Assembly (NCBI GenBank): GCA_037974665.1
Contig: CM075770.1
Coordinates: 64,739,850-64,803,849, forward strand
Reading direction: 5' to 3'
DNA from: Ehretia macrophylla
Taxonomy: Eukaryota > Streptophyta > Magnoliopsida > Boraginales > Ehretiaceae
DNA length: 64,000 nt
Below the pieces are notes generated by a model, which saw nothing but the letters and a program-made list of their open reading frames with translations, ran no database searches and had not been told where the DNA came from. The position numbers and the translations under genes were made by a program. Shown here in pieces: positions 29,362-64,000 of the stretch; positions within the stretch are counted from its first letter, which is position 1; every line of letters begins with the position of its first letter.

Positions 29362-29366
29362 GCAAC
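29362..29366. repeat. Target site duplication GCAAC, left
   Basis: GCAAC directly precedes the LTR start TGTGATACC and matches 36414-36418. In uninterrupted units the site reads CTTGGCAACCCTAACC. Confidence 0.9.
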
Positions 29367-32122
29367 TGTGATACCCCGAACCTAACACGCATTTAGTAGT
29401 ATTTAACTCCATTTAATTAAGTGTTTAATTAATTTGATCATTCATTTTGCACTATTTTGATATTTCTTTTAATAGCATTCAAATAATTTTTATATTGATT
29501 AGTTTAAAAGATTATTACCTATTTTTGTTGTTTATAGTAATTGGATTTATTTTCTTATATTTAATTAAGTGTCATCTTAAATGTTAGTATTTAATTGCTT
29601 TTGATTACTTGCTTATATTAACTTGTTCATTTGAATCTTAGCATTAATTTCATAATTCGTTAAAATATTCTAGAAATAGTTAAATTATTTATTTTTAAAT
29701 GAATATTGATTATTTTGATTATTTTAATAATCGATTTTAATTGTCTTGCATTAAAATTACTCGGTTTTCAATTAAATGAGAAAAGTAACTTCGAGCCGGA
29801 GTGAATTTTAAACTATTCTATTATTTTACTTTTCAAAAAAAATTATAGTTTTATATTATTGCTCATCATTTTATTAGCGATCATTTATTGACCGTTTGAT
29901 CGTAGTGCATCGAAAATGAGAGTTAGAGAAATATTCATCGGACTTAGTGAAAAATGGTTTTAGCTTAATTTAACTAGTTTTAGTTGTTTTTCATTTAATT
30001 GCATTGTTTTAACTTGAATTAGATTAAATGGTATCAAAATAAGCTTATTTGACTGTTTTTAACTTAAGCTTGATTTTGCAAAAGACCAAAATTCCCTTTG
30101 TCATCTTTTAAAAATAAAACAAGGCAAAAATCAAAACAAACAAAACCACAAATGACCATTTTGTCCCCCCACCCATGGTCGAATGCTTCCAAGGAGAAAA
30201 AAAATAATTTTGCTTCAATTTTCTTCTACAATCATGTGTGGAATTGCTTGGGAGTAGTAGCTCGGGTCCTTGTAGGGCTTCCTCGTCAATCTCTGTGAGC
30301 GTTTTCACGTTTTTGTTCATTTATATTCAAATTTGATTTTTGATTCAATTTCTTAGATTTGATATTTAATGCGTTATAATGCTTGAAATTCCTTGGAATT
30401 GCCTCTTTAGAGTTCGTAGAGCATTGCTTGTTAGTTATTTAGCAATTTTTACGGTTAGAAATGCAAATTGAATTTAGGCAAGAATGTGAATAGTAAAAGT
30501 GAATAGTAAAACCCTAGAATTTCATATTTTTTATCCGAATTGCGATTTCTTGATTTGGATAGGTGCCATTAATGATAGAAAGATAAAATGTCCAATAAAA
30601 ACAGACCGGCCTTTGTTAAAATTTGAAATTAGACAAAGAAACGAAAAGGGGCCGTTTGACCAAAAGTTGACCGTGCTCGAATTGAGTTGGGGTTTTTGCT
30701 ATTGAGGGCATCGAAGCATTTTTGGCGCTGTTGTGGCGTTGAATGAGTGACCGGTTAACATAGCTCTAGTTCAAATGTAGTAGGTGGACTTTCGGGCTTC
30801 GGTTGGAAAAATGAAGTTTCGTGACATATAAACGTGCCTTGTAGTGCCTAAGTGAATGTAGTGAAATCGATTTCCTAATCCCGTAGCTCGTTTGCTCGTA
30901 ATTGACTTTGGAAGTTAAGAATTAAATAGTGATATTTGACGTTTTCGTGTTTGAATTGCTATTACGTGTTTAGTTGATGTTCTTGTTAAAGTTAATGATA
31001 ATCATGCTTGAAAAGTTAATTGAATGCTAATGTTGATTGTAAATGCTTGATATCTCGTTTATCACCACTAATCTGCACTTTCGTGCTATTGCTCGTTTAT
31101 TGCTTGTATCTCGTATTGCATTGCATAGTGTCAGGCGCGTGAGTGATGGGCCTCTCTGGGTAGTCTTGGGCTGCCAGGGTTGGTTGCTCTAGCTCCGTGT
31201 CCTATTCCCATTCTCGCTAGGGATGCCGCCTTGGGTGATTTGGGTCGTAGATGTGTCGGGGTACTTTCAGAGTACACCCAGTGGATGTTATAAGGTGGTT
31301 GCGCGCTTATTGTCATCGTTGTCAACATCAAGCTCGAGATTGATGTAATGCTCGTGGAATCGAATCGCATGGTACATTGCTCGTATGAGTGAACCATAGC
31401 CTTCAGAGTGTGGTATAGCTTTGAATGGTTGTGATAATGCTTTTATTAATTGTTTATTGTATTGATTGTTTATATTGTTTGCTTACTTGTTAGTTATATT
31501 ACTTAACTGCCTTATTTGCATTGCACGACTTTCTTTCTCTCCACCTCGATATCTGTCTCGCCCTCACTAAGTATACGTGTTGTGTATACTCACTCCTCAC
31601 CACCACATTTCAGGAAATGCCATGTTAGCTGGAAAGTTCGTGGTTACGTGAAAGATCGTGCTTGAAGAGTTGTCTTGCGTGTTATGTGGCTGAGTTGTAG
31701 AAAGATGCAAAGATGTATATTTTCATGTAATGTATGTATTTAATGTTAAAAGTTATGTAATTAACTTAACTAGGTTTATTAGAATGGTATGATAGTCTAT
31801 TTTATGCAATAGGTTAGTATGGTTTAATTGTCAAGCATGAATGTACTTGTCAAAGTTGAGAAGAGATAGGTTAGTTTTTAAACTGGAATTGTATATTTAC
31901 TTGTGTTCGCTTGTTGAGAACCAAGGCTCGGATGGCCTTGAGGTGTTTGTATGGTTGGACACGGTGCTGGTCCACTTATATGCTGTCGCAGGTTTAGCAT
32001 TTTGCCTAGAAACAGGGGAGACTCTGTCCGTTTTCCCTAAAAAAATTTCCCGGGTTTGGAATTGGGTTGCGATTAGACTGATTGATAGAACTTCCGGTCT
32101 CGAGAGGGATCGGGGTGTTACA
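29367..32122 (+). repeat. 5' LTR of the large-LTR element
   Basis: 2,756 bp, nearly identical to 33649-36413, bounded by TG and CA. It contains only short spurious reading frames. One 88-codon minus-strand frame (31131-31397) is present in both LTRs simply because the LTRs are copies. Confidence 0.92.
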
Positions 32123-32125
32123 AGG

Positions 32126-32137
32126 TGGTATGAGAGC
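32126..32137 (+). other. Primer-binding site (initiator tRNA-Met)
   Basis: TGGTATGAGAGC begins three bases after the 5' LTR. It differs by one base from TGGTATCAGAGC, the usual complement of the plant initiator tRNA-Met 3' end. Confidence 0.75.
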
Positions 32138-33634
32138 TTGTTTAGCTCATAAGCCAGGACAGGGTCCTCGGTTTGTCAGGTAGTGATCCTTGAATGTGTG
32201 CTTGATAAGTGTGTCTTGAAAGTGTATGCTTGTATGTGAGATTGTGTGTCTTGACTTGAATGTATGCACCTATGTGATATAGTTATGTGTTATGTGCTAA
32301 ATGTGTGTTACGTGAAGTGAAGTGACTACTCATGTATCGAATTGGCATCGTGAATCGAATCGACCTCGTGAATTGTTATTTACTTGAAGTATTGCTTGTA
32401 ATGTGTGTATTGGAATGTCTTGACTTGGTTGTGCCGTGATTTGAATTGATTATGTTGTGCTTGACTTGATTGTCGTGCTTGAATGACTTTGATGATTAAA
32501 TTGTTTTGTAAACTCTTTTACAAATATGCTTGCATAATAGATTAAAGCATATATGTATAACTGTGATATCTTGGCATTCATACATGTCTTGTTGAAATGG
32601 TAAGAAAGACTTCTTCCTTCCCCTGAAGAGAGGTGATTTGTAGCAGGCCTCCAAGTTGTGTGGACTAGCGGGAATGAGAAGTATTTGGTTAGCCTTTATT
32701 TGGGAGTTGGTATTTGTCTTTGAAGCACTGTTACTAGCATTCTTCTAAGGCTTTCATTTGCGGTTGGCAATCATAAAAGGATAACTTTCCTTGGGATTTC
32801 TATACGACGACTCTTGCGAACATTCTTTTGGTATTTTCTTACTGGGTTTCCTTATTGGCAAGTTTGTACGAAGTTCTCACTTGGTGAACAGTGAAAAGGC
32901 CTTGGAGTTTGGTTTTGTATGTTGTGCACCTACTCGGGAATCTCACTCGGGTTTCTCATCTGGTTGGAAAAACTATATTTGTTATTTAACTTGACTGTCT
33001 TATTAGACACATGATAATTTCTCAAGTATTTCCTTTGGCATTCTTTTCAGCATTTGATAGTGGTACTCGGAATCTAATTGGTTATCTTGTTAGGTCTTTC
33101 ACTCGAAGACTATCTCGATGTATTGGTATATATAGGCATACATACTGGATTCCTTATTCAGGGACATATGGGAGTTATTATTTGAAAGACTTCTTTGGAA
33201 CTTTTTGAAGTATGTTTGACTTGGTTTTCTTAGTATTTTCTCAGCACTCCTAACAGAGAATTCTTCTATGGTATTCATGACCAGCGAGGTACTTCTACGA
33301 ACCTCTGGATGGGGTCTTTGTTTGAGCCTTTATTTGGCATCTTGCTTGGGAGTTCTCGGGCAGTAATAGTTGAACTTCTACTGGATATTCGTATGTGGGA
33401 TATTCTTTCGGTATTTTCTTGTCATTATTATGCGGTATTAGTATTATTTACAGTACATTTGCTTTAGTCTTTAGTTGGTATTTTCTCGACACTCTTGGTT
33501 AGGATTTCTATTTGGATTTTCCTACGGTTGTCTTATTCAGTATCATACTCAGCAACCGATGAAGATTAGTCAGAGTTGGATGTTAGATGATGCGAAGTTC
33601 TATTGGAAGAAGAATTGCGAGGATGCAATTGTTT
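32138..33634 (+). other. Interior of the large-LTR element, no coding capacity
   Basis: A T-rich stretch between the primer-binding site and the polypurine tract. The longest reading frames are about 65 codons and I recognise none. The string GTATTTTCT recurs at about 32830, 33233, 33412 and 33478, so part of the interior may come from degenerate short repeats. Confidence 0.6.
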
Positions 33635-33648
33635 TAAGGGGCGAAACA
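33635..33648 (+). other. Polypurine tract of the large-LTR element
   Basis: AAGGGGCGAAACA lies immediately before the 3' LTR, where plus-strand priming would occur. It is interrupted by two C bases, so the call rests mainly on position. Confidence 0.55.
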
Positions 33649-36413
33649 TGTGATACCCCGAACCTGACACGCATTTAATAGTATTTAACTGCATTTAATT
33701 AAGTGTTTAATTAATTAGATCATTCATTTTGCACTATTTTGATATTTCTTTTAATAGCATTCAAATAATTTTTATATTGATTAGTTTAAAAGATTATTAC
33801 CTATTTTTATTGTTTATAGTAATTGGATTTATTTTCTTATATTTAATTAAGTGTCATCTTAAATGTTAGTATTTAATTGCATTTGATTACTTGCTTATAT
33901 TAACTTGTTCATTTGAATCTTAGCATTAATTTCATAATTCATTAAAACATTCTAGAAATAGTTAAATTATTTATTTTTAAATGAATATTGATTATTTTGA
34001 TTATTTTAATAATCGGTTTTAATTGTCTTGCATTAAAATTACTCGGTTTTCAATTAAATGAGAAAAGTAACTCCGAGGCGGAGTGAATTTTAAACTATTC
34101 TATTATTTTACTTTTCAAAAAAAATTGTAGTTTTATATTATTGCTCAATATTTTATTAGCGATCATTTATTGACCGTTTGATCGTAGTGCATCGAAAATG
34201 AGAGTTAGAGAAATATTCCTCAGACTTAGTGAAAAATGTTTTTAGCTTAATTTAACTAGTTTTAGTTGTTTTTCACTTAATTGCATTGTTTTAACATGAA
34301 TTAGATTAAATGGCATCAAAATAAGCTTATTTGACAATTTTTAACTTAAGCTTGATTTTGCAAAAGATCAAAATGCCCTTTGTCATCTTTTAAAAATAAA
34401 ACAAGGCAAAAATCAAAACAAACAAAACCACAAATGACCATTTTGTCCCCCCCTCCCCCCTCCCCATGGCCGAATGTTTCCAAGGAGAAAAAAAATGATT
34501 TTGCTTCAATTTTCTTCTACAATCATGCGTGGAATTACTTGGGGGTCGTAGCTCGGGTCCTTGTAGGGCTTCCTCGTCAATCTCTGTGAGGGTTTTCACG
34601 TTTTTGTGCATTTATATTCAAATTTGATTTTTGATTCAATTTCTTAGATTTGATATTTAATGTGTTATAATGCTTGAAATTGTTTGGAATTGCCTCTTTA
34701 GGGTTCGTAGAGCATTGCTTGTTAGTTATTTAGTGATTTTTATAGTTAGAAATGCAAATTGAATTTAGGCAAGAAAGTGAATAGTAAAAATGAATAGTAA
34801 AACCCTAGAATTTCATATTTTTGATCCGAATTATGATTTCTTGATTTGGATAGGTGCCATTAATGATAGAAAGATAAAATGTTCAATAAAAACGGACTGG
34901 CCTTTGTTAAAATTGGAAATTAGACAATGAAACGAAAAGGGGCCGTTTGACCAAAAGTTGACCGTGCTCGAATTGAGTTGGGGGTTTTGCTATTGAGGGC
35001 ATGGAAGCACTTTTGGCACTGTTGTGGCGTTGATTGAGCGACTGGTTAACATAACTGTAGTTCAAACGCCATAGGTGGACTTTCGGGCTTCGGTTGGGAA
35101 AATGAAGTTTCGTGACATAGAAACGTGCCTTGTAGTGCCTAAGTGAATGTAGTGAAATCAATTTCCTAATCCCGTAGCTCGTTTGCTCGTAATTGCCTTT
35201 GGAAGTTAGGGATTGAATAGTGATATTTGATGTTTTCGTGTTTGAACTGCTATTACATGTTTAGTTGATGTTCTTGTTAAAGTTAATGATAATCATGCTT
35301 GAAAAGTTAATTGAATGCTAATGTTGATTGTAAATGCTTGATATCTCATTTATCGCCACTAATCTGCACTTTCGTGCTATTGCTCGTTTATTGCTTGTAT
35401 CTCGTATTGCATTGCATAGTGTCAGGCGCGTGAGTGATGGGCCTCTCTGGGTAGTCTCGGGCTGCCAGGGTTGGTTGCTCTAGCTCCGTGTCCTATTCCC
35501 ATTCTCGCTAGGGATGCCGCCCTGGGTGATTTGGGTCGTAGATGTGTCGGGGTACTTTCAGAGTACACCCAGTGGATGTTATAAGGTGGTTGCGCGCTTA
35601 TTGTCATCGTTGTCAACATCAAGCTCGAGATTGATGTAATGCTCGTGGAATCGAATCGCATGGTACATTGCTCGTATGAGTGAACCATAGCCTTCAGAGT
35701 GTGGTATAGCTTTGAATGGTTGTGATAATGCTTTTATTAATTGTTTATTGTATTGATTGTTTATATTGTTTGCTTACTTGTCAGTTATATTGCTTAACTG
35801 CCTTATTTGCATTGCACGACTTTCTTTCTCTCCACCTCGATATCTGTCTCGCCCTCACTGAGTATACGTGTTGTGTATACTCACTCCTCACCACCACATT
35901 TCAGGAAATGCCATGTTAGCTGGAAAGTTCGTGGTTACGTGAAAGATCGTGCTTGAAGAGTTGTCTTGCGTGTTATGTGGCTGAGTTGTAGAAAGATGCA
36001 AAGATGTATATTTTCATGTAATGTATGTATTTAATGTTAAAAGTTATGTAATTAACTTAACTAGGTTTATTAGAATGGTATGACAGTCTATTTTATGCAA
36101 TAGGTTAGTATGGTTTAATTGTCAAGCATGAATGTACTTGTCAAAGTTGAGAAGAGATAGGTTAGTTTTTAAACTGGAAATGTATATTTAATTGTGTTCG
36201 CTTGTTGAGAACCAAGGCTCGGATGGCCTTGAGGTGTTTGTATGGTTGGACACGGTGCTGGTCCACTTATATGTTGTCGCAGGTTTAGCATTTTGCCTAG
36301 AAACAGGGGAGACTCTGTCCGTTTTCCCTAAAAATTTTGCCCGGGTTTGGAATTGGGTTGCGATTAGATTGATTGATAGAACTTCCGGTCTCGAGAGGGA
36401 TCGAGGTGTTACA
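33649..36413 (+). repeat. 3' LTR of the large-LTR element
   Basis: 2,765 bp. It is longer than the 5' LTR mainly because of an expanded C/T-rich tract near 34446-34466. It ends GGTGTTACA before GCAAC. Confidence 0.92.
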
Positions 36414-36418
36414 GCAAC
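36414..36418. repeat. Target site duplication GCAAC, right
   Basis: Matches 29362-29366 and is followed by CCTAACCGAGG, the continuation of the interrupted 5S spacer. Confidence 0.9.
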
Positions 36419-36449
36419 CCTAACCGAGGAAAAAAAATTTGAAAAGGGG

Positions 36450-42672: not shown

Positions 42673-42830
42673 TTCATGTTGTGGGCACAAATCCTTTATG
42701 TGTTGACCGTTCACAGTCCCAGCCCAGAGATATGGCCCATTCAAAAGTCTCAATGGGCTTAACAACAACCCATCTACTTCAACAACGTAGCATCCAAATA
42801 AGACGTGATATCGAAGCATTGTAGGGCCCT

Positions 42831-43653
42831 TTAATGTCCCGCGAGTTAGGTTGTCGTCTTTTTAATAGCTCACGACGTACGATCCGGGATGAAAAAACAG
42901 AGCAAAAGAAGAAAAGTGGTCTAAAACTGATGAAAACGTTCGATTTTGGGTTCCGAAAATTGGCACAGCCGAGCAAGTTTACTGCCCCCATCGTACAGCT
43001 CTCGGAGAGCTTTCCAACAGTATGCTGTGCACCGCGTAACTCCGTACGGATTAAAAGTTATGCGCACCGGAACGAAGGAAACCAGGTCACAAGCCCCTCG
43101 CCCTGTAATATCCTGCAAGTTAGGTTGTCTTCCTTTTAACAACTCACGAACGTACGATCTGGGACAAAAAAATAGATCAAAAAAAGAAAAGTGGCCCAAA
43201 ACTGATAAAAACAATTTATTTTGTGCTCTAAAAACAGGCACAGCCGAGCATGTTTGTTGCCCCCGTCGTAGAGCTCTCGGAGTGCTTTCCAACAGTATGT
43301 TGTGCGCCGCGTAACTCCTTACGGATTAAAAGGTAGGGGCGCCGGAGCAACGGAAACATGGTCACAAGCCCCTCGCCCTGTAATATCCTGCGAGTTAGGT
43401 TGTTGTCCTTTTAACAGCTCACGACGTACGATCCGGGGCAAAAAAACAGGGCAAAAAATGAAAAGTAGCCTAAAACTGATGAAAACATTCTATTTCGGGC
43501 TCCGAAAATAGGCGCAGCCGAGCAGGATTGCTGCCCCTGTCGTAGAGCTCACGGAAAGCTTTTCAATGGCATGCTGTGCGCTGCGTAACTCCTTACGGAT
43601 CAAAAGTTATGGGCACCGGAGCGACGGAGACCTGGTCACAAGCCCTATGCCCT
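42831..43653. repeat. Spacer segment triplicated in one 5S unit
   Basis: A segment of about 275 bp occurs three times in tandem (42831-43104, 43105-43379, 43380-43653), giving a 1228-bp unit with one 5S gene. Both junctions read CTCGCCCTGTAATATCC. They fuse the CGCCCTC site to the GGGCCCTGTAATATC site through a shared GCCCT. Confidence 0.88.
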
Positions 43654-51934: not shown

Positions 51935-52052
51935 GGGTACAACACGAGGACTTCCCAGGGGGTTACCCATCCTAGTACTACTCTCGGCCAAGCACGCTTA
52001 ACTTAGTAGTTCTGATCGGATCCGGTGCTTTAGTGCTGATATGATCGCACTC
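51935..52052 (-). rRNA. 5S rRNA gene copy 66 (class B), left of the copia element
   Basis: Nine substitutions. Eight of them (nt 2, 14, 24, 36, 46, 48, 89 and 114) recur in copy 68, 11,204 bp away. Confidence 0.88.
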
Positions 52053-52612
52053 GTCATGTTGAGAGCACAAATCCTTTATGAGTTGACGGTTCACTGTCCC
52101 AGCCTAGAGAGATGGCCCATTCAAAAGGCCCAATGGGCTTAACGACAACCCATCCGCTTCAACAACGCAGCATCCTCGCAAGACGTGATATCGACGCATT
52201 GTAGGGCCCTCTACTATCCTGCGAGTTAGGTTGTCGTCCTTTTAACAACTCACGACGTACGATCCAGGATAGAAAAACAGAGCAAAAGAAGAAAAGTGGC
52301 CCAAAACTGATAAAAATGTTCGATTTTGGGCTCCAAAAATGGCTGCAGCCAAGCAGGCTTGCTACCCCCGTCGTAGAGCTCTCGGAGAGCTTTCCAACGG
52401 TATGCTGTGCGCCACGTAACTCCTTACGGATCAAAAGTTATGGGCACCAGAACGACGAAGACCTAGTCACAAGCCCTACGCCCTCGGTTTGCGGGCCAAG
52501 CCTCTACGTGAAGTGAAGTTGTCTTGCCCAAGGTGCCATGGGATTTGGTAATAGAAATGTGGTGGATAAAGAATCTTGGCAACCCTAACCGGGGCAAAAA
52601 AAATTGAAAAGG

Positions 52613-52617
52613 GGGGT
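52613..52617. repeat. Target site duplication GGGGT, left
   Basis: GGGGT precedes the LTR start TGTTGGCC and matches 62457-62461. It is the sequence at the 3' terminus of a 5S gene. Confidence 0.9.
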
Positions 52618-54121
52618 TGTTGGCCTGAAAAGCCTATAATCTTTATTTTGATAATAACAAAACATCTAAATCGTGCTTTAGCATTCTCTCTTATTGTATG
52701 ACCTTCATTCCAACAAAGCAAGTCCACATCAACATTGGATCAACTTGTCTTAGTCAAAGAGTAGAAAGCTATTTGGATCAAAGTCCAAGCACTATCAAAT
52801 TGTATCCAAGCCCAAAAGAATTCAAGTTATTGACTCATCGATAAAGAGGGAGTCACAAGGAATGAGAAGTGGTGACATAAGGGGTACCGGCCTTAAAAGA
52901 TGTCGCTTGCCTAAGTATGATTTGTATTGCTCATAATTTCTCCAAAAATGTTTTTCGATCAACATCTATTCAAAATCATCCTTAAAAAATATTTTTTTAT
53001 TTCAAACTCTTGTATTTGAAATCATTTTAAATAAATACCTTTCAACTGGTTTGAAAATATTTTGGGATGTTAAAAAATGCTAAGAAATCTCTCTTTTATG
53101 TGCCCAAATATTTTTGGGCTCAAAATATACCTTTTCAGCAATTTTTAAGCATCCGGGCATTACTGGCTTTTTTCGGTCGCCCGGATAGAAGGAGCAACGC
53201 CCAGCAGAAAAGTCTGATCCGGGCGATACATGCTCTTTCCGGGCGCCCGGATCAATGCCTCAGCGCCCGGATGGGTTAACGGGAAAATCCAGAAATTTTG
53301 TTTAAAATCCGATTTGTGTCTAAACTTTCCCTCTTTTTAAGCCATGCTCTCTCACCTTCTAAACAACCCCTCCAAGCCATAATTTTCAGATTTCAAAAGA
53401 GCTTTCATATCATTCTTTTTGAGAAATCTTGAGCTATCATTATCATATTTTTGAGCATTCAAAGCTATTCTTCAATTGTAATATCAAACTCAAATAGGAG
53501 TTGCAATTGTCATTTATTCTATCACATAATCTCTGTAATATATTCTTTCACATAGGTTGAGAGAATCATTGTGAGAAGAAGTATTGTAATCCTTTGTGGA
53601 CTCAAAGGAAGAAAGGGTAGTAGGTTAAGCTTCACCTACATTTGAAGGAGCTTGTGTAACTCTTGTGGACTCAAGAGTAATTGTAGTTGGTTCTTGCTTC
53701 ACCAACATTTGAAGAAGCATCTTAGTAAAGAGTTATTAAATCATAAGGGAAGAGAAGACCTTAGGTGGTGGACTAGGCCTCCGGGAGTGCGAACCACTTA
53801 AAAATCATCGTGTTTGATTTCTCTTACTCTATTCTCTTTATTTTCAAGTCATTTACTTTCGTGTGAATATTGCTCACATTAATTGTTTGATAATTGTTTA
53901 GATATCTATTTGATATTTTACCTTGAAGTTCTAATTGCACATCTAGTGTTGAATACTTGTATACTCACTAAGTGTTTGATAAATTGCCTACAAGAAATTC
54001 TAGTGTATTATCAATCTTTACTAGACATTGCCTTCGTATTAAGAATTTTTTAAATTGCTTTAACTTGGCTATCAACCTAATTTACCCCCCTCCCCCCCTT
54101 TTAGTTTATTAAGGACCAACA
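52618..54121 (+). repeat. 5' LTR of the copia element
   Basis: 1,504 bp from TGTTGGCC to GGACCAACA, with inverted termini TGTTGG and CCAACA. It differs from the 3' LTR by a few percent by eye. It contains a pair of GC-rich palindromes at 53153-53270. Confidence 0.94.
53153..53270. promoter_or_regulatory. Palindrome pair in the 5' LTR
   Basis: Two 52-bp imperfect palindromes start 66 bp apart (53153 and 53219). Each has an outer arm CCGGGCG, a central CCGGGCGCCCGG and a closing CGCCCGG. The first is more degraded. The cassette lies about 850 bp before the end of the LTR. Conserved palindromes are known in Sirevirus LTRs; the regulatory role here is inferred. Confidence 0.65.
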
Positions 54122-54123
54122 AG

Positions 54124-54137
54124 TGGTATCAAGAGCT
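54124..54137 (+). other. Primer-binding site of the copia element
   Basis: TGGTATCAAGAGCT starts three bases after the 5' LTR. It resembles the complement of initiator tRNA-Met (TGGTATCAGAGC) with one extra A. Confidence 0.85.
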
Positions 54138-54177
54138 AGTACTCTACATATAGCTTAACATCTAGTAGAGGATCCCT

Positions 54178-55851
54178 ATGGCAAGCTCATCAATGTCTAA
54201 TATAGTTGAAGGACAATCTTCCTCTAGACCACCATTGTTTAATGGAACAAACTATTCTTTTTGGAAAACTAGGATGAGAATCTATATTCTAGCAAATGAC
54301 ATAAGAGTTTGGAATGTGATAAAAAAATGGACCAATCAATCCTACTTTAACTAAAAAGGAAGGAGAACAAAGTATCACTATCCCTAAACCGGAAAAAGAT
54401 TATAATGATGATGATTTCAAAATGTGTGAAAGAAACTATAAAGCTATGAATATGTTATATCTTGCTTTAGATTCAAATGAGTTCAATAAAATTTTTACGG
54501 ATGCAAAAGTGCTAAAGAAATTTGGGATCAATTAGAAGTCACATATGAGGGCACCAATCAAGTTAAAGAAACTAGAATAAACATGCTTGTTCATAAATAT
54601 GAAATGTTCAAGATGTCTTTTGATGAAAATATAGAACAAATGTTTTCTAGATTCACTGATATTGTTAATGCTCTAAAATCTCTTGGAAAAGAGTATTCTA
54701 ATGAAGAATTGGTAGGAAAAGTTCTCCGAAGCTTAACCGAGCCATGGGAAGCTAAAGTAACGGCTATTGAAGAAGCTAGAGACCTCAAAACTCTCACTCT
54801 TAGTGAACTTATGGGATCTCTTATGAGCCATGAGTTGAAGAAGAAAGATCGAGAAGAAGAAAAAAGGAATAACAAAAAGTCACTTGCACTTCTTGCATCA
54901 AAGGCTTACTCAAGTGATGAAGAAGAAGAAAACAAAGAAGATGATGATGAGATAGCTCTTCTTACAAGGAACTTTAAGAAATTTCTCAAATTCAAAAAGG
55001 TAAGCAAAGCTCCCTACAATAGGTTTATGAACAAAGGAAGAAACAAATCAAAAGAAGAAGGAAGGTGTTTCAATTGTGACAAGACAGGTCACATAAAAGT
55101 AAATTGTCCAAAACCAATCAAAACCAAGGGAGGAAAAGCTTTGAAAGCAACATACGTTGATGACAATGCATCAACCGGTGAGGAAAGTGAAAATGAAGAA
55201 GTGGCAAACATCGTTTGTCTTATGACAAAAGAAGATGATGAGGTATGTTCTTCCTTTAATTCCGAATATTACACCTCTAGCTCATTAATTGAAAATGAAT
55301 GTTCTTTTGAAGAATTACAAAATGAATTTTCAAAAATACATGATAGTTTTGAAATTGCAATTATCAAGATACATGAACTTCAAAAGGAAAATAATACCTT
55401 AAAAGAAGAAAATAAGTTGCTTGAAAAAGATCGAAATTTTGCTCATGAAAAAGCACTTAAAATTCATTTCGAAAATAATAATCTTCAAACAAAAATTGAA
55501 AAACTTGAAAAAGAAAATCAAGGATTAAATGGAAACCTTGCAAGATTTACAAAAGGAAAAGAAAATCTTGATAAAATGCTTGGCTCTCAAAAAATGGCTT
55601 TTGATAAAAGTGGATTAGGATATGAACCTTCTTCAAAACAAAAATCTCTAAAAAATTATTTTGTTAAAGCATCATCCTCTACAAATGAAGCATCAACATC
55701 TAAAGGATTTCAAAAAACATGCACCTATTGTGAAAGACAAGGTCACATAACATCACATTGTAAATTTCGAAATATGATAGGTAGAGACTCCAAAATTCCT
55801 TCTTGGCTTAAACCAAAATGGATTATTAAAAGTGTTAAAAGTAAATACTAA
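54178..55851 (+). pseudogene. gag: copia gag, frameshifted
   Basis: Gag forms the virus-like particle and binds the RNA genome. The likely start is the ATG at 54178, which opens into a copia-type N-terminal motif (FNGTNYSFWKTRM). A frameshift at the A7 run 54321-54327 and a compensating one near 54503 interrupt the frame. From 54583 a 422-codon stretch is open. In that stretch residues 162-175 (CFNCDKTGHIKVNC) and 380-393 (CTYCERQGHITSHC) are CX2CX4HX4C zinc knuckles. They flank an acidic region and a coiled coil of about 70 residues. Two knuckles and the coiled coil are typical of Sirevirus gag. Gag ends at a TAA (55849-55851) and pol lies in another frame. Confidence 0.88.
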
Positions 55852-55915
55852 CAATATAGGACCCAATAGAACTTGGGGACCTAAATTTTATTTTTGTATA
55901 TAGGTTACCCAAAGG

Positions 55916-56809
55916 ATGAAGTATGAAGGAAATTGGGTCATTGATAGTGGATGTTCAAGACATATGACCGGTGATCCATCTCTTTTCTATGAGCCTATCA
56001 AAAATTACAAAGGCTTTGTGAGTTTTGGAAATAATGAAAAAGGTAAAATTATTGGTAAAGGTAGCATTGGAAATAATGAAATAATGAAAGGATTGCAACA
56101 TAATTTGCTTAGTGTAAGTCAACTATGCGATAATGATTATCTAGTTAAATTTAAATCATCATGTTGCACCATTTTTGACAAAATGAAAAATGTGTTGTTT
56201 ATTGCAAATAGACATGAAAATGTCTATATTATTGACTTTGAAAGTATATCATGCCAAAATATTGATTGTTTAATCACAACAAATGAAAGTTCTTGGTTAT
56301 GGCATAGAAGATTAGGATATATCAGTATGGATCTACTTGGTAAACTTTCTCGAAAGGATCTTGTGAGAGGCCTTCCTAAGACCAAGTTTAAAAAAGATCA
56401 TTTATGTGATGCATGTCAATTTGGAAAACAACATAAAGTATCTTTCATTACCGTTAGCCATGTGACTACATCAAAAGCTCTACAAAAACTTCATATGGAC
56501 CTTTTTGGACCAATGGATGTAATAAGTCTAGGAGGATCTAGATATGTTTTTGTTATTGTTGATGATTATACTAGATACACATGGGTAATGTTTCTTGTTT
56601 TCAAAAGTGATGCTTTCAATGAATTTGCAAAATTCTGTAAAAGAGTGCAAAATGAGAAAGGATACTATATTTCATGCATTCATAGTGATCAAGGCACAGA
56701 GTTCATAAATGCATCTTTTGTGGAATTATGTGAACAAAATGGCATTAAGCATAACTTTTCGGCTCCTAGAACTCCTCAACAAAATGGGGTTGTTGAAAGG
56801 AAAAACTGA
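55916..56809 (+). pseudogene. pol: copia pol: protease and integrase core
   Basis: This 297-codon open stretch starts with the aspartic protease active site DSG (residues 10-12). The integrase zinc region follows: H130, C164 and C167 are present, but the second histidine, usually in RLGH, is Y135. The integrase catalytic triad is D195, D258 and E294 with the expected DX35E spacing. A TGA at 56807-56809, just after VVERKN, truncates the integrase. The frame continues open beyond it, so this is a nonsense mutation. About 60 bp separate it from the end of gag. Confidence 0.88.
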
Positions 56810-57484
56810 AATTTACAAGAAATGGCAAGAACAATGTTGAAAGAAAACAATTTGCCTACATACTTTTGGGGAGAAACTGTTAATACGGCTTGTTATACTC
56901 TAAATAGAGTTTTAATTAGACCTTCTCTCAAGAAAACTCCATATGAATTATGGAAAGGACGTACTCCAAATATCTCACATTTTAAAGTTTTTGGATGTAA
57001 ATGCTTCATCTTAAATAATAAAGAGTATCTTGGTAAGTTTGATTCAAAATCCGACGAAGGTATTTTTATTGGATATTCTTCTAGAAGCACGGCACATCGA
57101 GTTTCAAATAAAAGAACCTCCGTAATTGAGGAATCTATGCATATTAACTTTGATAAAACTAACCCATTTATGTCAAGAAAAGATGAAGATGAGGATGTAA
57201 GCTTTCAACAAGTTGAAGAACAAAGTCAACCTATTCCGACAAGTGAAGAAGGCAATACATCCACAAGCAATCAAATTGATACTCCACTAGAGGAAGAACA
57301 ACCAACTTCAAATGATCAAATCATATCAACAAATCAAGATCTTCCAAAATGTTGGAAATTTGTCAAAAATCATCCAAATGATCAAATCCTTGGGGATCCA
57401 TCACAAGGTGTAAGAACTCGTTCCAATCTAAATACTTTTTGTGAACATGTAGCTTTTATATCTCAAATTGAACCTAAAATATAA
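56810..57484 (+). pseudogene. pol: copia pol: integrase C-terminal part
   Basis: Same frame as the preceding stretch, after the TGA. It contains the conserved copia integrase region around PYELWKGRTPNISHFKVFGCKCF and a variable hydrophilic linker rich in E, Q, S and T leading to reverse transcriptase. It ends at 57484 because of a frameshift just before the reverse transcriptase domain. Confidence 0.85.
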
Positions 57485-58440
57485 AAGAAGCATTATTGGA
57501 TGATGATTGGATTATTGCTATGCAAGAAGAGCTTAATCAATTTGAAAGAAATCAAGTTTGGACCTTAGTTGAAAGACCTAGTAATTACCCAATTATTGGT
57601 ACAAAATGGGTTTTCTGAAACAAACTAGATGAATCCGGTAATGTAACTAGAAATAAGGCTAGATTAGTTGCTCAAGGGTATAATCAAGAAGAAGGAATAG
57701 ACTATGAAGAAACCTTTGCACCGGTAGCTCGACTTGAATCCATTAGAATGTTACTATCATATGCATGCTTTATGAACTTCAAACTTTATCAAATGGATGT
57801 CAAAAGTGCTTTCTTAAATGGATATCTTCAAGAAGAAGTTTATGTTGAACAACCACCCGGTTTTGAAAATACAAATTTATTAAGTCATGTATTCAAACTT
57901 CAAAAAGCTCTTTATGGACTTAAACAAGCACCTAGGGCATGATATGATAGATTAAGTAATTATCTACTTGACAACGGCTTTTCTAGAGGTAAATTAGACT
58001 CTACATTATTTGTAAAAAGAAAAGCTAAAGATATCTTGCTTGTTCAAATATATGTTGATGATATTATCTTTGGTACTACTAACGAATCCATTTGCAAGTA
58101 TTTCTCTGAATGTATGCATAAAGAATTTGAAATGAGCATGATGGGAGAATTAAATTTCTTCCTTGGACTTCAAATCAAACAAACAAAAGAAGGGATCTTC
58201 ATTAATCAAGCCAAGTACATTAAGGAACTCATCAAAAGGTTTGGGCTTGAAACTACAAAAGAAATGAGCACTCCTATGGGAACGTCAATCAAACTTGACA
58301 AAGATGAAAAAGGTAAATCGGTTGATGAAAAACAATATCGAGGTATGATTGGAAGCCTTTTCTATTTAACTGCTTCAAGACCTAATATTATGTTTTCTGT
58401 ATGCTTGTGTGCTCGTTTTCAATCAAAGAATCACACTTGA
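57485..58440 (+). pseudogene. pol: copia pol: reverse transcriptase
   Basis: Copies the element's RNA into DNA. In the frame opened by the preceding shift, conserved copia blocks are visible: [21 protein letters not shown], then [12 protein letters not shown] with the first catalytic Asp, EQPPGFE, and YVDDIIFG (58051-58074) with the catalytic YVDD. TGA stops at 57616-57618 and 57940-57942 interrupt the frame. A further frameshift near 58425 separates it from RNase H. The enzyme cannot be made intact from this copy. Confidence 0.9.
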
Positions 58441-58988
58441 ATGCTGTAAAAAGGATTATTAGATACCTTAAGGGTACTATCAATCTAGGACTCTTTTATC
58501 CTAAAGGCATATCTTTCGAACTTCTAGGATACTCTGATGCCGATTATGCGGGGTGTAAAATTGATAGAAAAAGCACTAGTGGCAGTTGTCAATTTCTAGG
58601 ACACGCTTTAGTTTCATGGTCTAGCAAGAAACAACATAGTGTAGCCCTTTCAACAAAAGAAGCCGAGTATGTAGCTATAGGTAATTGTATTGCACAAATT
58701 CTATGGATGAAACAAACTTTACTTGACTTTGGTCTAGAATATGATCATGTGCTTATCAGGTGTGATAATACAAGTGCTATAAGTCTATCAAAGAACCCAA
58801 TTCAACATTCTAGAACTAAGCATATTGAAATTCGTCATCATTTTCTAAGAGATCATGTGCAAAAAGGAGATACTGAACTTGTTTTTGTTGATTCTTTGCA
58901 TCAATTGGACGATATTTTTACAAAACCATTGCATGAGAATCAATTTTGTGCTATTAGAAGGGAGCTAGGAATGCTTTGGGTCACTTAA
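58401..58988 (+). pseudogene. pol: copia pol: RNase H
   Basis: C-terminal pol domain that degrades the RNA strand during reverse transcription. Motifs seen are YSDADYAG (first Asp), the STSG box, KEAEY (Glu), CDNTSA (second Asp) and the closing KHIEIRHHFLRD...FTKPL typical of copia RNase H. It is open to its natural stop at 58986-58988 but lies in a different frame from reverse transcriptase. Confidence 0.9.
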
Positions 58989-59026
58989 CTTTGCAAAAAA
59001 TTGCATTTTTTTTGTAAAATAGTGAT

Positions 59027-59144
59027 CCGGACATTACTACCTTCTTCCGGGTGCCCGGAAGAAGCATGTAACGACCGGAACATTGTTCTCTGCCGGGCGT
59101 TACTGCCCTTATCCGGGCGCCCGGAACAAGGGCATATCGCCCGG
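59027..59144. promoter_or_regulatory. Palindrome pair between pol and the third ORF
   Basis: Two 52-bp imperfect palindromes at 59027-59078 and 59093-59144, with the same 66-bp offset and the same CCGGGCG arms and centre as the LTR pairs. The second is close to a full dyad around TCCGGGCGCCCGGA. A pyrimidine-rich stretch (CTCTCTTCTCTCC) follows, then the ORF start 295 bp on. It may be an LTR-derived promoter or leader for the third ORF (inference). Confidence 0.6.
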
Positions 59145-59438
59145 ATCGCACAGCTTGAAAACCGTAAATCCTCTCTTCTCTCCTCACTTTTTCACATCTC
59201 TTCAAATACAAACTCAATTTTCTCTCAATTCCTCATATTTATACACCAACACCTTCACCATCACTCACCATTATTTGCATCAAAACACTCTTTAATCATC
59301 AAAATCTTGTGTTTTCATCATCAAAGCTTTCAAAATCTTCAACATCAAATCCTTCAAAAAACCTTGTGTACAAGGTGTTCACTAGAATTCCTCAATCAAG
59401 TCTTTCTTCTAACAAGCTTCACAATCTTACAACTTCCA

Positions 59439-60506
59439 ATGGCACCACCAAGAGCTGACTCTAAGAAACGCAAGCAAGGAGAATCTTTATCATCAGGCCC
59501 TCAAATCATTGTTAATCCCGATGCTTTTCCACAACAAAACATCTTAGGGGGTAAGACTTTAGACCCTTCTACCTTGCTTAATAGCACTAGAATTTATAGG
59601 CTTTTAGATGCTCAAGGGTGGCTACTTATGTTAAGGTTTGAAAACAAAGGAAATACTTCATGGATTAGAGAATTCTATTACTATGTTGACTTAGATTTCA
59701 ACACCATGAAATTGAATAGTCAAGTTAAGTCTAAAGAACTGGAATTAACTGCAAGTATTGTTGCTAGAGCTTTTGGGATTCCAAATCAAGGCACAAAGCT
59801 TTATTCTTATAGAGGCATGCTAGAAGGTGTTCTTGATAACTTAGAAGCCAATGTTATAGAATTTCTTTGGGAAGGAACGGGAACAAGCTCCTTAAGTTAT
59901 CCTAAGACTAAGGATCTCACTCCAGAAAAGAAACTGTTATTTTACATTCTTCATGAAGTCATTATTCCACGAGAAGTTAAAGATGGTTCGATTCCAAAAT
60001 TCACTGCTTTGTTGATGTATTTGATGTATGAAGCCAAACGTATCAATCTTCCACATATCATCATTAACCATATCATCCACACCAAGCAAGCTCAAAATCA
60101 ACTTGCTTATGGGGTACCCTTAACTTACCTTTTTGAGTCGCTAGAAGTTCCGCGTGTTCAAGAGTTTGAGGCCATTAGTGATAGATCCTATCTTCTCAAT
60201 GTCACTAGCCTCACTCGCCAAAAGTTGAAAATCCATAACTCTCGCGTTCTCAATATTGGTGATGATACGAGTGATGATCCTCTTGAATTTGAACCTCTTG
60301 ATGTTGACCCTACTACTTTTAGAGATCCTATGGAACGTCAAGGCAGCAGTGGTGTTGGCACTTCTCAAGGACAAAGAGCTAGACCGTCTTCCTCTCACTC
60401 CTCCTCACATGATGAAATTCTTGCACACCTACATGCACAAGACGTTCATTTGGACGGAATGGAGCAGATGTTGAAGGCTTTATATGACCACCACATTGGT
60501 CCTTAG
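59439..60506 (+). CDS. Third ORF of the copia element (plant-transposon-type accessory protein)
   Basis: An intact 355-codon frame lies between RNase H and the polypurine tracts. I chose the ATG at 59439 (MAPPRADSKKRKQ) because the frame upstream to 59001 has no ATG-type start and crosses the palindromes. Visible features are a basic KKRKQ cluster near residue 9, a central alpha/beta-like domain (about 30-260) with REFYYYVDLD and VARAFGIP, a Ser-rich stretch near 310-325, and an amphipathic C-terminal helix. The centre resembles the putative plant transposon protein domain found in ORFs carried by plant retroelements. Its function is unknown. Sirevirus third ORFs are often called env-like, but I see no signal peptide or clear membrane anchor. 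It is the only long frame in the element without a lesion. Confidence 0.7.
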   Translation: MAPPRADSKKRKQGESLSSGPQIIVNPDAFPQQNILGGKTLDPSTLLNSTRIYRLLDAQGWLLMLRFENKGNTSWIREFYYYVDLDFNTMKLNSQVKSKELELTASIVARAFGIPNQGTKLYSYRGMLEGVLDNLEANVIEFLWEGTGTSSLSYPKTKDLTPEKKLLFYILHEVIIPREVKDGSIPKFTALLMYLMYEAKRINLPHIIINHIIHTKQAQNQLAYGVPLTYLFESLEVPRVQEFEAISDRSYLLNVTSLTRQKLKIHNSRVLNIGDDTSDDPLEFEPLDVDPTTFRDPMERQGSSGVGTSQGQRARPSSSHSSSHDEILAHLHAQDVHLDGMEQMLKALYDHHIGP

Positions 60507-60746
60507 TCTGTGGATGCCTTGAGATGTGTTTTCTCTTCAAACATTCTTTTTTTGCTTTCAGTTGTTTCTTTCATAAAAAACTCCTTAGTTTTTTTTTTCT
60601 TGTCTTTTAACATTGTTTGGATACTTTGCTTCATTTCATTAATGCTTTGCATTTCCCTTCCTTATCTCTTGTCTTATACCTATTATCTCTTACTGTGGCT
60701 TTTACTCTTATGATTATTTGCTATAGACAACTATACTTTGTTGATG
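60507..60746. other. T-rich noncoding stretch after the third ORF
   Basis: A T-rich region with a 67-codon hydrophobic frame that starts with GTG, not ATG. I consider it a composition artefact. It leads into the repeated polypurine tracts. Confidence 0.5.
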
Positions 60747-60752
60747 ACAAAT

Positions 60753-60764
60753 AGGGGGAGAAAG
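60753..60764 (+). other. Upstream polypurine tract 1
   Basis: AGGGGGAGAAAG preceded by TTGATGACAAAT, the same context as the final tract. Repeated polypurine tracts before the 3' LTR are a known Sirevirus feature. Confidence 0.7.
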
Positions 60765-60816
60765 TATATATGGTAATTGAAATGAAATAAAAGTATGTCT
60801 GTCATTGCAGTTATTC

Positions 60817-60825
60817 AGGGGGAGA
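60817..60825 (+). other. Upstream polypurine tract 2
   Basis: AGGGGGAGA followed by TTGCT, resembling the final tract's junction with TTGTTGG. Confidence 0.65.
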
Positions 60826-60867
60826 TTGCTTTTCAAGGTCAAGCTAAATTTTATCAAGCACAAATTG

Positions 60868-60876
60868 AGGGGGAGA
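60868..60876 (+). other. Upstream polypurine tract 3
   Basis: AGGGGGAGA within CAAATTGAGGGGGAGACC. Confidence 0.65.
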
Positions 60877-60946
60877 CCTCAAATCAAGTTTTATTCTTTA
60901 ATTTCAACTATTTCATGCTTGTTAACTTCAATGTTTTGTCATCATC

Positions 60947-60960
60947 AAAAAGGGGGAGAT
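60947..60960 (+). other. Functional polypurine tract of the copia element
   Basis: AAAAAGGGGGAGAT sits directly before the 3' LTR, as needed for plus-strand priming. Confidence 0.85.
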
Positions 60961-62456
60961 TGTTGGCCTGAAAAGCCTATAATCTTTATTTTGATAATAA
61001 CAAAACATCTAAATCGTGCTTTAGCATTCTCTCTTATTGTATGACCTTCATTCCAACAAGGCAAGTCCACATCAACATTGGATCAACTTGTCTCAGTCAA
61101 AGAGTAGAAAGATATTTGGATCAAAGTCCAAGCACTATCAAATTGTATCCAAGCCCAAAAGAATTCAAGTTATTCACTCATCGATAAAGAGGGAGTCACA
61201 AGGAAGGAGAAGTGGTGACATATGGGGTACCGGCCTTAAAAGATGTCGCTTGCCTAAGTATGATTTGTATTGCTCATAATTTCTCCAAAAATGTTTTTCG
61301 ATCAACTTCAATTCAAAATCATCCTTAAAAAATATTTTTTTATTTCAAACTCTTGTATTTGAAATCATTTTAAATAAATACCTTTCAACTAGTTTGAAAA
61401 TATTTTGGGATGTTAAAAAATGCTAAGAAATCTCTCTTTTATGTGCCCAAATATTTCTGGGCTCAAAATATACCTTTTCAGCATTTTTTAAGCATCCGGG
61501 CGTTACTGGCCTTTTCCGGTCGCCCGGATAGAAGGAGCAACGCCCGGCAGAAAAGTCTGATCCGGGCGATACATGCTCTTTCCGGGCGCCCGGATCAATG
61601 CCTCAGCTCCCGGATGGGTTAACGGGAAAATTCGAAAATTTTGCTTAAAATCCGATTTGTGTCTAAACTTTCCCTCTTTTTAAGCCATGCTCTCTAACCT
61701 TCTAAACAACCCCTCCAAGCCATAATTTTCAGATTTCAAAAGAGCTTTCATATCATTCTTTTTGAGAAATCTTGAGCTATCATTATCATATTTTTGAGCA
61801 TTCAAAGCTATTCTTCAATTGTAATATCAAACTCAAATAGGAGTTGCAATTCTCATTTATTCTATCACATAATCTCTGTAATATATTCTTTCACATAGGT
61901 TGAGAGAATCATTGTGAGAAGAAGTATTGTAATCCTTTGTGGACTCAAAATAAGAAAGGGTAGTAGGTTAAGCTTCACCTACATTTGAAGGAACTTGTGT
62001 AACTCTTGTGGACTCAAGAGTAATTGTAGTTGGTTCTTGCTTCACTAACATTTGAAGAAGCATCTTAGTAAAGAGTTATTAAATCATAAGGGAAGAGAAG
62101 ACCTTAGGTGGTGGACTAGGCCTCCGGGAGTGCGAACCACTTGAAAATCATCGTGTTTGATTTCTCTTACTCTATTCTCTTTATTTTCAAGTCATTTACT
62201 TTCGTGTGAATATTGCTCACATTAATTGTTTGATAATTGTGTAGATATCTATTTGATATTTTACCTTGAAGTTCTAATTGCACATCAAGTGTCGAATACT
62301 TGTATGCTCACTAAGTGTTCGATAAATTACATACAAGAACTTCTAGTGTATTATCAATCTATACTAGACATTGCCTTCGTATAAAGAATTTTTTAAATTG
62401 CTTAAACTTGCCTAACAACCTAATTCACCCCCCTTTTAGATTATTAAGGACCAACA
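60961..62456 (+). repeat. 3' LTR of the copia element
   Basis: 1,496 bp from TGTTGGCC to CCAACA. In the first 179 bp it differs from the 5' LTR at three sites. It is a few bases shorter, partly because a C-run near 54086-54108 is contracted here. Confidence 0.94.
61496..61613. promoter_or_regulatory. Palindrome pair in the 3' LTR
   Basis: Counterpart of 53153-53270, with palindromes at 61496-61547 and 61562-61613. The first is better preserved than in the 5' LTR. Confidence 0.65.
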
Positions 62457-62461
62457 GGGGT
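62457..62461. repeat. Target site duplication GGGGT, right
   Basis: Follows CCAACA directly and forms the 3' terminal bases of 5S copy 67. Matches 52613-52617. Confidence 0.9.
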
Positions 62462-62575
62462 ACAACATGAGGACTTCCCAGGGGGTCACCCATCCTAGTA
62501 CTACTCTCGCCCAAGCACGCTTAACTTCGGAGTTCTGATGGGATCCGGTGCATTAGTGCTGGAATGATCGCACCC
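62458..62575 (-). rRNA. 5S rRNA gene copy 67 (class B), cut off from its terminator
   Basis: Three substitutions (nt 13, 108 and 114) and intact boxes. The copia element inserted at the last bases of this gene. Target duplication kept the gene full length but moved its oligo-T terminator to the far side of the element, near 52600. On the minus strand the first run of four T lies about 310 bp downstream, at 62144-62147 inside the LTR. Confidence 0.94.
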
Positions 62576-63138
62576 ATCATGTTGAGGGCACAAATCTTTT
62601 ATGTGTTGACGGTTCATAGTCCCAACCCAGAGAGATGGCCCATTCAAAAGGCCCAATGGGCTTAACGACAGCCCATCCGCTTCAACAACGCATCATCCTG
62701 GTAAGTGGTGATATAGTCGCATAGTAGGGCCCTGTAATATCCCACGAGTTAGGTTGTCGTCCTTTTAACAGCTCACGACGTACGATCCAGGATGGAAAAA
62801 CAGAGCAAAAGAAGAAAAGTGGCCCGAAAATGATGAAAACGTTCGATTTTGGGATCTGAAAATGGGCGCAGCCGAGCAGGCTTGCTGCCCACATCTTAGA
62901 GCTCTCAGAGAGCTTTCCAACGGTATGCTGTGCACCGCGTAACTCCTTACGGATTAAAAGTTTTGGGCACCGGTGCGACGGAGACCTAGTCACAAGCCCC
63001 ACGCCCTCGGTTTGCGGCCCCAGCCTCTACGTGAAGCGAAGTTGTCTTGCCCAAGGTGCCGTGGGATTCGGTAATAGAAATATGGTGGATAAAGTATCTT
63101 GGCAACCCTAACTGGGGCAAAAAAAAATTAAAAATGGG

Positions 63139-63256
63139 GGGTACAACACGGGGACTTCCCAGGGGGTTACCCATCCTAGTACTACTCTCGCCCAAGCACG
63201 CTTAACTTAGTAGTTCTGATCGGATCCGGTGCTTTAATGCTGATATGATCGCACTC
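63139..63256 (-). rRNA. 5S rRNA gene copy 68 (class B)
   Basis: Ten substitutions, eight of them shared with copy 66. It is the unit just left of the second copia LTR copy. Confidence 0.88.
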
Positions 63257-63821
63257 GTCATGTTGAGAGCACAAATCCTTTATGAGTTGATGGTTCACTG
63301 TCCCAGCCCAGAGAGATGGCCCATTCAAAAGGCCCAATGGGCTTAACGACAACCCATCCGCTTCAACAACGCAGCATCCTCGCAAGACGTGATATCGACG
63401 CATTGTAGGGCCCTCTACTGTCCCGCGAGTTAGGTTATCGTCCTTTTAACAGCTCACGACGTACGATCCGGGACAGAAAAACAGAGCAAAAGAAGAAAAG
63501 TGGCTCGAAACTGATAAAAACGTTCGATTTTGGGCTCCAAAAATGGCCGCAGCCAAGCAGGCTTGCTACCCCCGTCGTAGAGCTCTCGGAGATATTTCCA
63601 ACGGTATGCTGTGCGCCACGTAACTCCTTACGGATCAAAAGTTATGGGCACCAGAACGACGAAGACCTAGTCACAAGCCCTGCGCCCTCGGTTTGCGGGC
63701 CAAGCCTCTACGTGAAGTGAAGTTGTCTTGCCCAAGGTGCCATGGGATTTGGTAATAGAAATGTGGTGGATAAAGAATCTTGGCAACCCTAACCGGGGCA
63801 AAAAAAATTGAAAAGGGGGGT

Positions 63822-64000
63822 TGTTGGCCTGAAAAGCCTATAATCTTTATTTTGATAATAACAAAACATCTAAATCGTGCTTTAGCATTATCTCTTATTG
63901 TATGACCTTCATTCCAACAAAGCAAGTCCACATCAACATTGGATCAACTTGTCTTAGTCAAAGAGTATAAAGCTATTTGGATCAAAGTCCAAGCACTATC
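63822..64000 (+). mobile_element. Second copy of the copia element, 5' LTR start, cut by the window edge
   Basis: 179 bp of LTR start at the same base of a 5S unit as the 52618 element, again after GGGGT. It matches the 5' LTR at all three sites where the 5' and 3' LTRs of the complete element differ, and has two private changes. Whether a full element follows cannot be seen. Confidence 0.92.

What the first reader, a model, noticed from the sequence alone, without database searches (positions are those of the whole stretch)
51935..64000. A Sirevirus-like element has become part of an 11.2-kb higher-order 5S repeat
The LTR at 63822 begins exactly 11,204 bp after the LTR at 52618, at the same base of the 5S unit, after the same GGGGT. 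The preceding units (51935-52617 and 63139-63821) are both 683 bp and share rare 5S variants (eight common changes) and spacer variants. They differ at only about 18 sites by eye, far fewer than typical unit pairs. The edge LTR carries all three diagnostic states of the 5' LTR rather than the 3' LTR. Segmental duplication by unequal exchange after insertion explains this better than two independent insertions. The retroelement would then be amplified as part of the rDNA repeat, without transposing.
Basis: partly seen in the sequence, partly recalled or inferred. Interest (0 to 1): 0.8.

Follow-up and report, generated by a model that had tools for sequence, protein, structure and literature searches.

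The report
Retroelement trapped in duplicated 5S repeats
A mobile element jumped once into a row of 5S ribosomal RNA genes and was then copied twice along with its neighbours by ordinary DNA recombination, giving three tandem 11.2-kb copies, a clear new example of a process already known from plant centromeres.

Summary
The window lies on contig C7 of an unnamed 1.58-Gb genome. Past its edge the period continues, giving three tandem copies (periods 11,204 and 11,216 bp). Each is a 5S unit, a Sirevirus element (Ty1/copia, SIRE lineage) flanked by GGGGT, and another 5S unit. Copies differ by 1.0-1.4%, whereas 5S units of this array differ by about 13% on average. Each insertion junction occurs exactly three times in the genome, all here. 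Thirteen LTR sites separate the three 5' LTRs from the three 3' LTRs: one insertion, then duplication. LTR divergence puts the duplications at somewhat under half the age of the insertion. The first exchange maps to an 18-bp A/T tract beside the 5S gene's 3' end, and both internal joins carry it, which fits two rounds of unequal exchange. Gene conversion blurs the branching order. Upstream, a 27.3-kb duplication carries a second, noncoding LTR element. Segmental duplications carrying LTR elements are published for maize centromere 10, so this is a new member of a known kind. A side result may matter more: a 35-base 5S core matches 210,164 times in this genome. Read coverage could not be checked.

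The parts
51935..52617 (-). 5S unit U1, left flank of element copy 1; 5S gene on the minus strand
   Evidence: 683 bp; 18 differences from U2
52613..52617 (+). left copy of target site duplication GGGGT
52618..54121 (+). 5' LTR of copy 1 (1504 bp)
54583..58988 (+). interrupted gag-pol region of copy 1: gag, zinc knuckle, pre-integrase/integrase, SH3-like and reverse transcriptase matches in separate ORF pieces
   Evidence: the last piece (58401-58988) had no Pfam match
59001..60506 (+). extra ORF between pol and 3' LTR (Pfam Transposase_32 match)
60951..60958 (+). Sirevirus-type polypurine tract AGGGGGAG, 10 bp before the 3' LTR
60961..62456 (+). 3' LTR of copy 1 (1496 bp)
62457..62461 (+). 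right copy of target site duplication GGGGT
62457..63138 (-). 5S unit F1, right flank of copy 1; 5S gene on the minus strand
63117..63134 (.). A/T tract to which the exchange point maps: right-flank state up to 63116, left-flank state from 63135
63139..63821 (-). 5S unit U2, left flank of element copy 2
63822..64000 (+). start of the 5' LTR of copy 2, cut by the window edge; the element runs on to window position 73673 and copy 3 lies at 75038-84891 in extended coordinates

Best explanation
A Sirevirus inserted once at the 3' end of a 5S gene in a diverged 5S array (shown: LTR structure, target duplication, LTR-specific sites). Later, misaligned chromatids exchanged within the A/T tract beside a 5S gene and duplicated the block U + element + F in tandem (shown: block structure and position of the join; inferred: unequal exchange as the process). 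A second exchange, between the two long copies and in register, gave the third copy (inferred: the same F|U join stands at both internal junctions but not after F3). The element thus gained two copies without transposing. Gene conversion has since mixed some sites between LTRs and between 5S units (inferred).
For: Three tandem copies 1.04-1.41% apart over 11.1 kb. Left and right junction patterns each found 3 times genome-wide with 0 mismatches, reversed-pattern controls 0. 13 of 59 two-state LTR sites split 5' from 3' LTRs in all three copies, split support 100. LTR divergence within copies 2.3-2.8%, same-end between copies 0.7-1.4%. U units match each other at 97.1-99.1% and F units at 96.6-99.0% against a background of 87.0%. 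A genome search with U2 plus LTR start found nothing closer than 91% outside the three copies among the 40 candidates scored of 11,580. Join mapped to 63117-63134 in both F1 and F2.
Against: Branching is not clean: 7 LTR sites join the 3' LTRs of copies 1 and 3, 5 join the 5' LTRs of copies 2 and 3, 4 join the 5' LTRs of copies 1 and 2, and element singletons are nearly even, 67, 55 and 51. The 5S units of period 1 differ from the others by 2.6-3.0%, about twice the element's 1.2-1.3%. Upstream of the join, 12 of 74 informative sites in F1 and 4 of 74 in F2 already carry the left-flank state. Sequence alone does not tell unequal exchange from other recombination routes.
Confidence: 0.85

Rival explanations
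1. The same tandem block arose through another recombination route: excision of a circle holding the element and two 5S units and its re-insertion in the array, or break-induced replication restarting at a wrong 5S unit.
For: It would leave the same block and the same F|U join (inference); the join lies in a short A/T tract.
Against: No independent trace of a circle; simple unequal exchange needs fewer steps. Not separable with the data on hand.
Confidence: 0.2
2. Three independent insertions into the same base of similar 5S units.
For: Elements do hit the same base of the 5S unit repeatedly: for the second, noncoding LTR element, 22 junctions share one base, with LTRs of only 71.5% median identity among 21 loci compared.
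Against: Both flanking 5S units are shared between copies far above background; 13 LTR-end-specific sites are shared by all copies; both junctions are confined to this spot.
Confidence: 0.01
3. Assembly artefact: one real copy written out three times, or haplotypes joined in tandem.
For: Tandem arrays are prone to misassembly (general knowledge); no reads were available.
Against: Each pair differs by 116-157 substitutions and 5-7 indel events over 11.1 kb; no N in the 16 C7 stretches checked.
Confidence: 0.04

Closest known systems
Maize centromere 10: 22.7-kb segmental duplication holding centromeric retroelements, and CentC higher-order repeats (PMC4806543, passages read)
   Same: LTR elements copied in place by local duplication, dated by divergence of the copies, in a tandem-repeat region.
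   Different: Centromeric array and CR elements; junction by 5-nt end joining inside elements there, in-register 5S homology here.
Maize Mo17 5S array (PMC10335936, passages read)
   Same: 5S array with transposon insertions, mostly Copia, in its more diverse end.
   Different: One array of 1,387 genes; the passages do not describe an element copied with 5S units.
Pike (Esox) 5S rDNA (PMC5437419, passages read)
   Same: Extreme 5S amplification on many chromosomes: over 20,000 copies by sequencing, above 200,000 by slot blot, with higher-order organisation.
   Different: Few SNPs there, about 13% unit divergence in the array here; the passages shown do not describe an LTR element in a repeated block.
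Cassandra TRIM tandem arrays (PMC7215508, abstract read)
   Same: Tandem LTR-element arrays linked to 5S sequence and attributed to recombination.
   Different: Small elements that carry 5S sequence in their LTRs; here a coding Sirevirus sits between real 5S units.
ATHILA copies duplicated within Arabidopsis centromere satellites (recalled; the paper is not held)
   Same: Element copied with surrounding satellite after insertion.
   Different: Other superfamily and other array; nothing was read here to confirm details.

Membership tests
Sirevirus (Ty1/copia, SIRE lineage) | copia-type gag and pol with integrase before reverse transcriptase | tested here: met
   Pfam matches in separate ORF pieces, in that order
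Sirevirus (Ty1/copia, SIRE lineage) | PPT AGGGGGAG 10 bp before the 3' LTR, followed by AT/TG, with further copies in the linker (PMC2829016) | tested here: met
   Terminal PPT present in copies 1 and 3, altered in copy 2; 4, 3 and 2 octamers in copies 1, 2 and 3
Sirevirus (Ty1/copia, SIRE lineage) | conserved 5' LTR/PBS junction (PMC2829016) | tested here: met
   Matches in copies 2 and 3; copy 1 has a private change
Sirevirus (Ty1/copia, SIRE lineage) | repeated palindromes with CGG-CCG core, at least 8 copies | tested here: inconclusive
   Such palindromes occur in LTR and linker, but only 1-2 strict ones per region; more with one mismatch allowed in half sites
Sirevirus (Ty1/copia, SIRE lineage) | polyC-rich signal near the LTR 3' end | tested here: met
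   C run about 25 bases before the LTR end in all three 3' LTRs, judged by eye
Sirevirus (Ty1/copia, SIRE lineage) | extra ORF downstream of pol (74% of SIRE elements, PMC6317226) | tested here: met
   501-aa ORF 59001-60506
Sirevirus (Ty1/copia, SIRE lineage) | placement in an RT/integrase tree | not tested
   no reference set on hand
Higher-order repeat formed by segmental duplication | multi-unit block repeated in tandem, blocks much more alike than units within a block | tested here: met
   blocks 98.6-99.0% alike, U against F units about 89-90%
Cassandra TRIM | small element without coding region and 5S sequence in its LTRs | tested here: not met
   9.8-kb element with gag and pol matches; no 5S Rfam match inside the element

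The most novel reading that the evidence does not exclude
In this genome the 5S repeat has become a major satellite (210,164 core matches, about 9% of the genome if each stands for a 680-bp unit), and recombination inside its arrays is a recurrent route by which LTR elements gain copies without transposing, at times between chromosomes: this Sirevirus block (three copies), a noncoding LTR element in 27-kb blocks upstream on C7, and loci on C4, C8 and C1 where LTR and 5S flank are both closely matched.
Probability: 0.5. Interest if true: 0.6.

Novelty: new member of a known kind. Interest (0 to 1): 0.42.

Why it matters
It is a clean case in which element copy number rises by array recombination, with the insertion, the exchange point and the order of events readable from sequence. 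Counting such copies as transpositions would overstate activity. Because LTR pairs date the insertion and copy pairs date the duplications, such blocks can serve as clocks for the turnover of 5S arrays.

Tried and rejected
Targeting of the Sirevirus family to 5S 3' ends: of 10 other LTR pairs whose flanks I fetched, 3 had 5S or 5S-spacer-derived flanks and 7 had none; no flank seen ended at the site found here. Gaps in that test: the 5' flank of the C3 copy was element-internal, the C9 5' boundary was mis-set by my script, and the 3' end was not located for C17, C12 and C7. Targeting is unsupported.

One dispersed insertion of the second, noncoding LTR element: its left junction with the 5S spacer occurs 22 times and its right junction 22 times, which first looked like a single amplified repeat. 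I compared 21 of the 22 left junctions (C4:85153569 was not fetched); 3 of the 21 turned out to be a different target site but stayed in the counts. Median LTR identity is 71.5%, flank identity (87.1%) equals that of control units (87.1%), and LTR and flank distances do not correlate (Spearman -0.06, Mantel p 0.64). With 36,943 LTR starts and 5S-type flanks in 9 of 12 copies sampled from the 40 best hits (one of the 12 showed no LTR start), same-base hits of this number are about what chance gives (rough estimate, inference). Local duplicate clusters remain within the set.

Two solo-LTR-plus-unit repeats at C4:76.63 Mb (spacing 4,406): LTRs 98.0% alike but flanks only 88.1%; left open.

A viral-contig search with the last pol piece found no relative. 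The organism was not identified.

Full report
Setting. The window is C7:64739850-64803849 of an unnamed 1.58-Gb genome in 20 contigs. It is mostly a 5S array: 68 Rfam 5S matches, all on the minus strand. Over 64.69-64.84 Mb I cut out 102 units, 65 of them inside the window. Their mean pairwise identity is 87.0%, sd 1.7%, over 5,151 pairs. The array is diverged, so a 97% pair stands out.

The observation. The edge LTR has the 5' state at the three differences visible before the window ends.

Extension. LTR pairs lie at C7 64792467/64800810, 64803671/64812027 and 64814887/64823245. That is three tandem copies. Compared slice by slice from window position 51989 on, copies 1-2, 1-3 and 2-3 differ by 1.41%, 1.41% and 1.04% over 11.14-11.16 kb, with 7, 7 and 5 indel events. 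A left-junction pattern of 33 bases and a right-junction pattern of 32 bases, up to 3 mismatches allowed, each occur exactly three times in the genome, all without mismatch; reversed-pattern controls gave none.

Structure of one period. U unit, element (9,839 bp in copy 1, LTRs of 1,504 and 1,496 bp), F unit: 9,839 + 682 + 683 = 11,204. GGGGT stands on both sides of the element, at the 3' end of the 5S gene.

One insertion, then duplication. Of 59 two-state LTR sites, 13 separate the three 5' LTRs from the three 3' LTRs; the same split has bootstrap support 100 in an unrooted tree. LTR divergence within copies is 2.8, 2.3 and 2.5%; same-end LTRs of different copies differ by 0.7-1.4%. The ratio of the means is 0.44, so on a common clock the duplications are somewhat under half as old as the insertion. 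I give no absolute dates because species and rate are unknown. Of six ORF-ending stops of copy 1, five are at the same place in copies 2 and 3 and one is private to copy 1. Some of the five may be natural ORF ends, and other family members were not checked, so this is weaker evidence than the LTR sites.

Exchange point. I took F3 as the original right flank and the unit left of U1 as the original left flank. At 78 sites where these differ, F1 and F2 have the left-flank state at the last four sites (window 63135 on) and the right-flank state at 63116; between lies an 18-bp A/T tract beside the 5S gene. Upstream, F1 has the right-flank state at 62 of 74 sites and F2 at 70 of 74; the rest I read as conversion or later change in F3. 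The same join in F1 and F2 fits a first exchange between 5S units and a second one in register between the long copies.

What does not fit neatly. 5S units of period 1 differ from those of periods 2 and 3 by 2.6-3.0%, while the element differs by 1.2-1.3%. LTR sites give conflicting groupings: 7 sites join the 3' LTRs of copies 1 and 3, 5 join the 5' LTRs of copies 2 and 3, 4 join the 5' LTRs of copies 1 and 2. Element singletons are 67, 55 and 51, close to a star. Conversion among copies and with neighbouring units is likely but not proven.

What the element is. Pieces match copia-type gag, integrase and reverse transcriptase in that order, with an extra ORF before the 3' LTR. The Sirevirus polypurine tract stands 10 bp before the 3' LTR in copies 1 and 3, with further octamers in the linker; the primer-site junction matches in copies 2 and 3 (definitions from passages of PMC2829016 and PMC6317226). 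CGG-CCG palindromes are present but fewer than the published minimum. No tree of polymerase domains was made.

Other duplications in the same array. Of 17 unit pairs above 95% identity, 6 belong to the 11.2-kb block, 6 to a 27.3-kb duplication upstream, 4 to a 3.2-kb one at window 5184-10271, and 1 is a separate pair at 12304 and 14333. In the 27.3-kb duplication 14 of 14 unit pairs taken in order are 91.9-99.7% alike. It carries a noncoding LTR element with LTRs of about 3.8 kb; its inserts there are 17.25 kb, apparently with three LTRs, and 10.56 kb. No ORF of 130 aa or more was found in the 10-kb piece L019. A third left junction of it lies at C7:64680366, with flank 99.8% and LTR 98.0% like the one at 64727962.

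Wider genome. A 35-base 5S core matches 210,164 times with up to 3 mismatches, a 118-base 5S sequence 33,443 times with up to 3, and a 26-base spacer piece 56,603 times with up to 1; reversed controls gave none. If each core stands for a 680-bp unit that is 143 Mb or 9% (inference). Loci with both LTR and flank closely matched occur at C8:92.66 and C4:73.41 (flank 97.0%, LTR 98.8%), C8:92.69 and C4:73.41 (95.2%, 98.3%), and C4:75.78 and C4:77.99 (97.2%, 97.7%); three C1 loci have LTRs 97.8-98.5% and flanks 89.5-93.2%. The control flanks reach at most 92.3% to junction loci. So duplication carrying LTR elements looks recurrent, though most same-base junctions of that element look independent.

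Literature. Seven searches on 5S arrays, retroelements, higher-order repeats, ATHILA and 5S-derived satellites showed no listed title or abstract start that describes a complete LTR element duplicated together with 5S units; lists were cut at 8-15 papers and only passages of a few were read. Maize centromere 10 (PMC4806543) documents the same kind of event elsewhere, and the maize 5S array carries Copia insertions (PMC10335936). Hence: new member of a known kind.

Noticed in passing
whole genome G000: A 35-base 5S gene core matches 210,164 times (up to 3 mismatches) and a 118-base 5S sequence 33,443 times (up to 3); the 5S repeat looks like a major satellite of this genome.
   Followed up: partly
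L029-L048 and L068-L079 (e.g. flanks on C12, C17, C9, C1): Flanks of several LTR-element copies show a tandem repeat of about 342 bp made of 5S-spacer positions 293-634, apparently a 5S-spacer-derived satellite.
   Followed up: no
C7:64690546-64738535 (window -49303 to -1314): 27.3-kb duplication of about 14 5S units with a noncoding LTR element (LTR about 3.8 kb, TSD GTTGT), inserts of 17.25 and 10.56 kb, the former apparently LTR-internal-LTR-internal-LTR.
   Followed up: partly
window 29366-36449: Insert of about 7.1 kb in the array with two direct repeats of about 2.8 kb (92-99% alike per 400-base piece) and only two ORFs of 100 aa or more: a second noncoding LTR-type element.
   Followed up: no
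window 5184-10271: Duplication with 3,221-bp spacing that contains shortened 595-bp 5S units.
   Followed up: no
window 42826-43645: A 275-bp piece of the 5S spacer stands in three tandem copies inside one unit.
   Followed up: no
C7:64833110-64890277 and from 64890748: About 57 kb without 5S matches, after which the 5S array continues in the opposite orientation up to at least 64902907.
   Followed up: no
C4:76632973-76641131: Two junctions of the noncoding element 4,406 bp apart, with right junctions 4,404 bp apart, as for a solo LTR plus one 5S unit in tandem; LTRs 98.0% alike, flanks 88.1%.
   Followed up: partly
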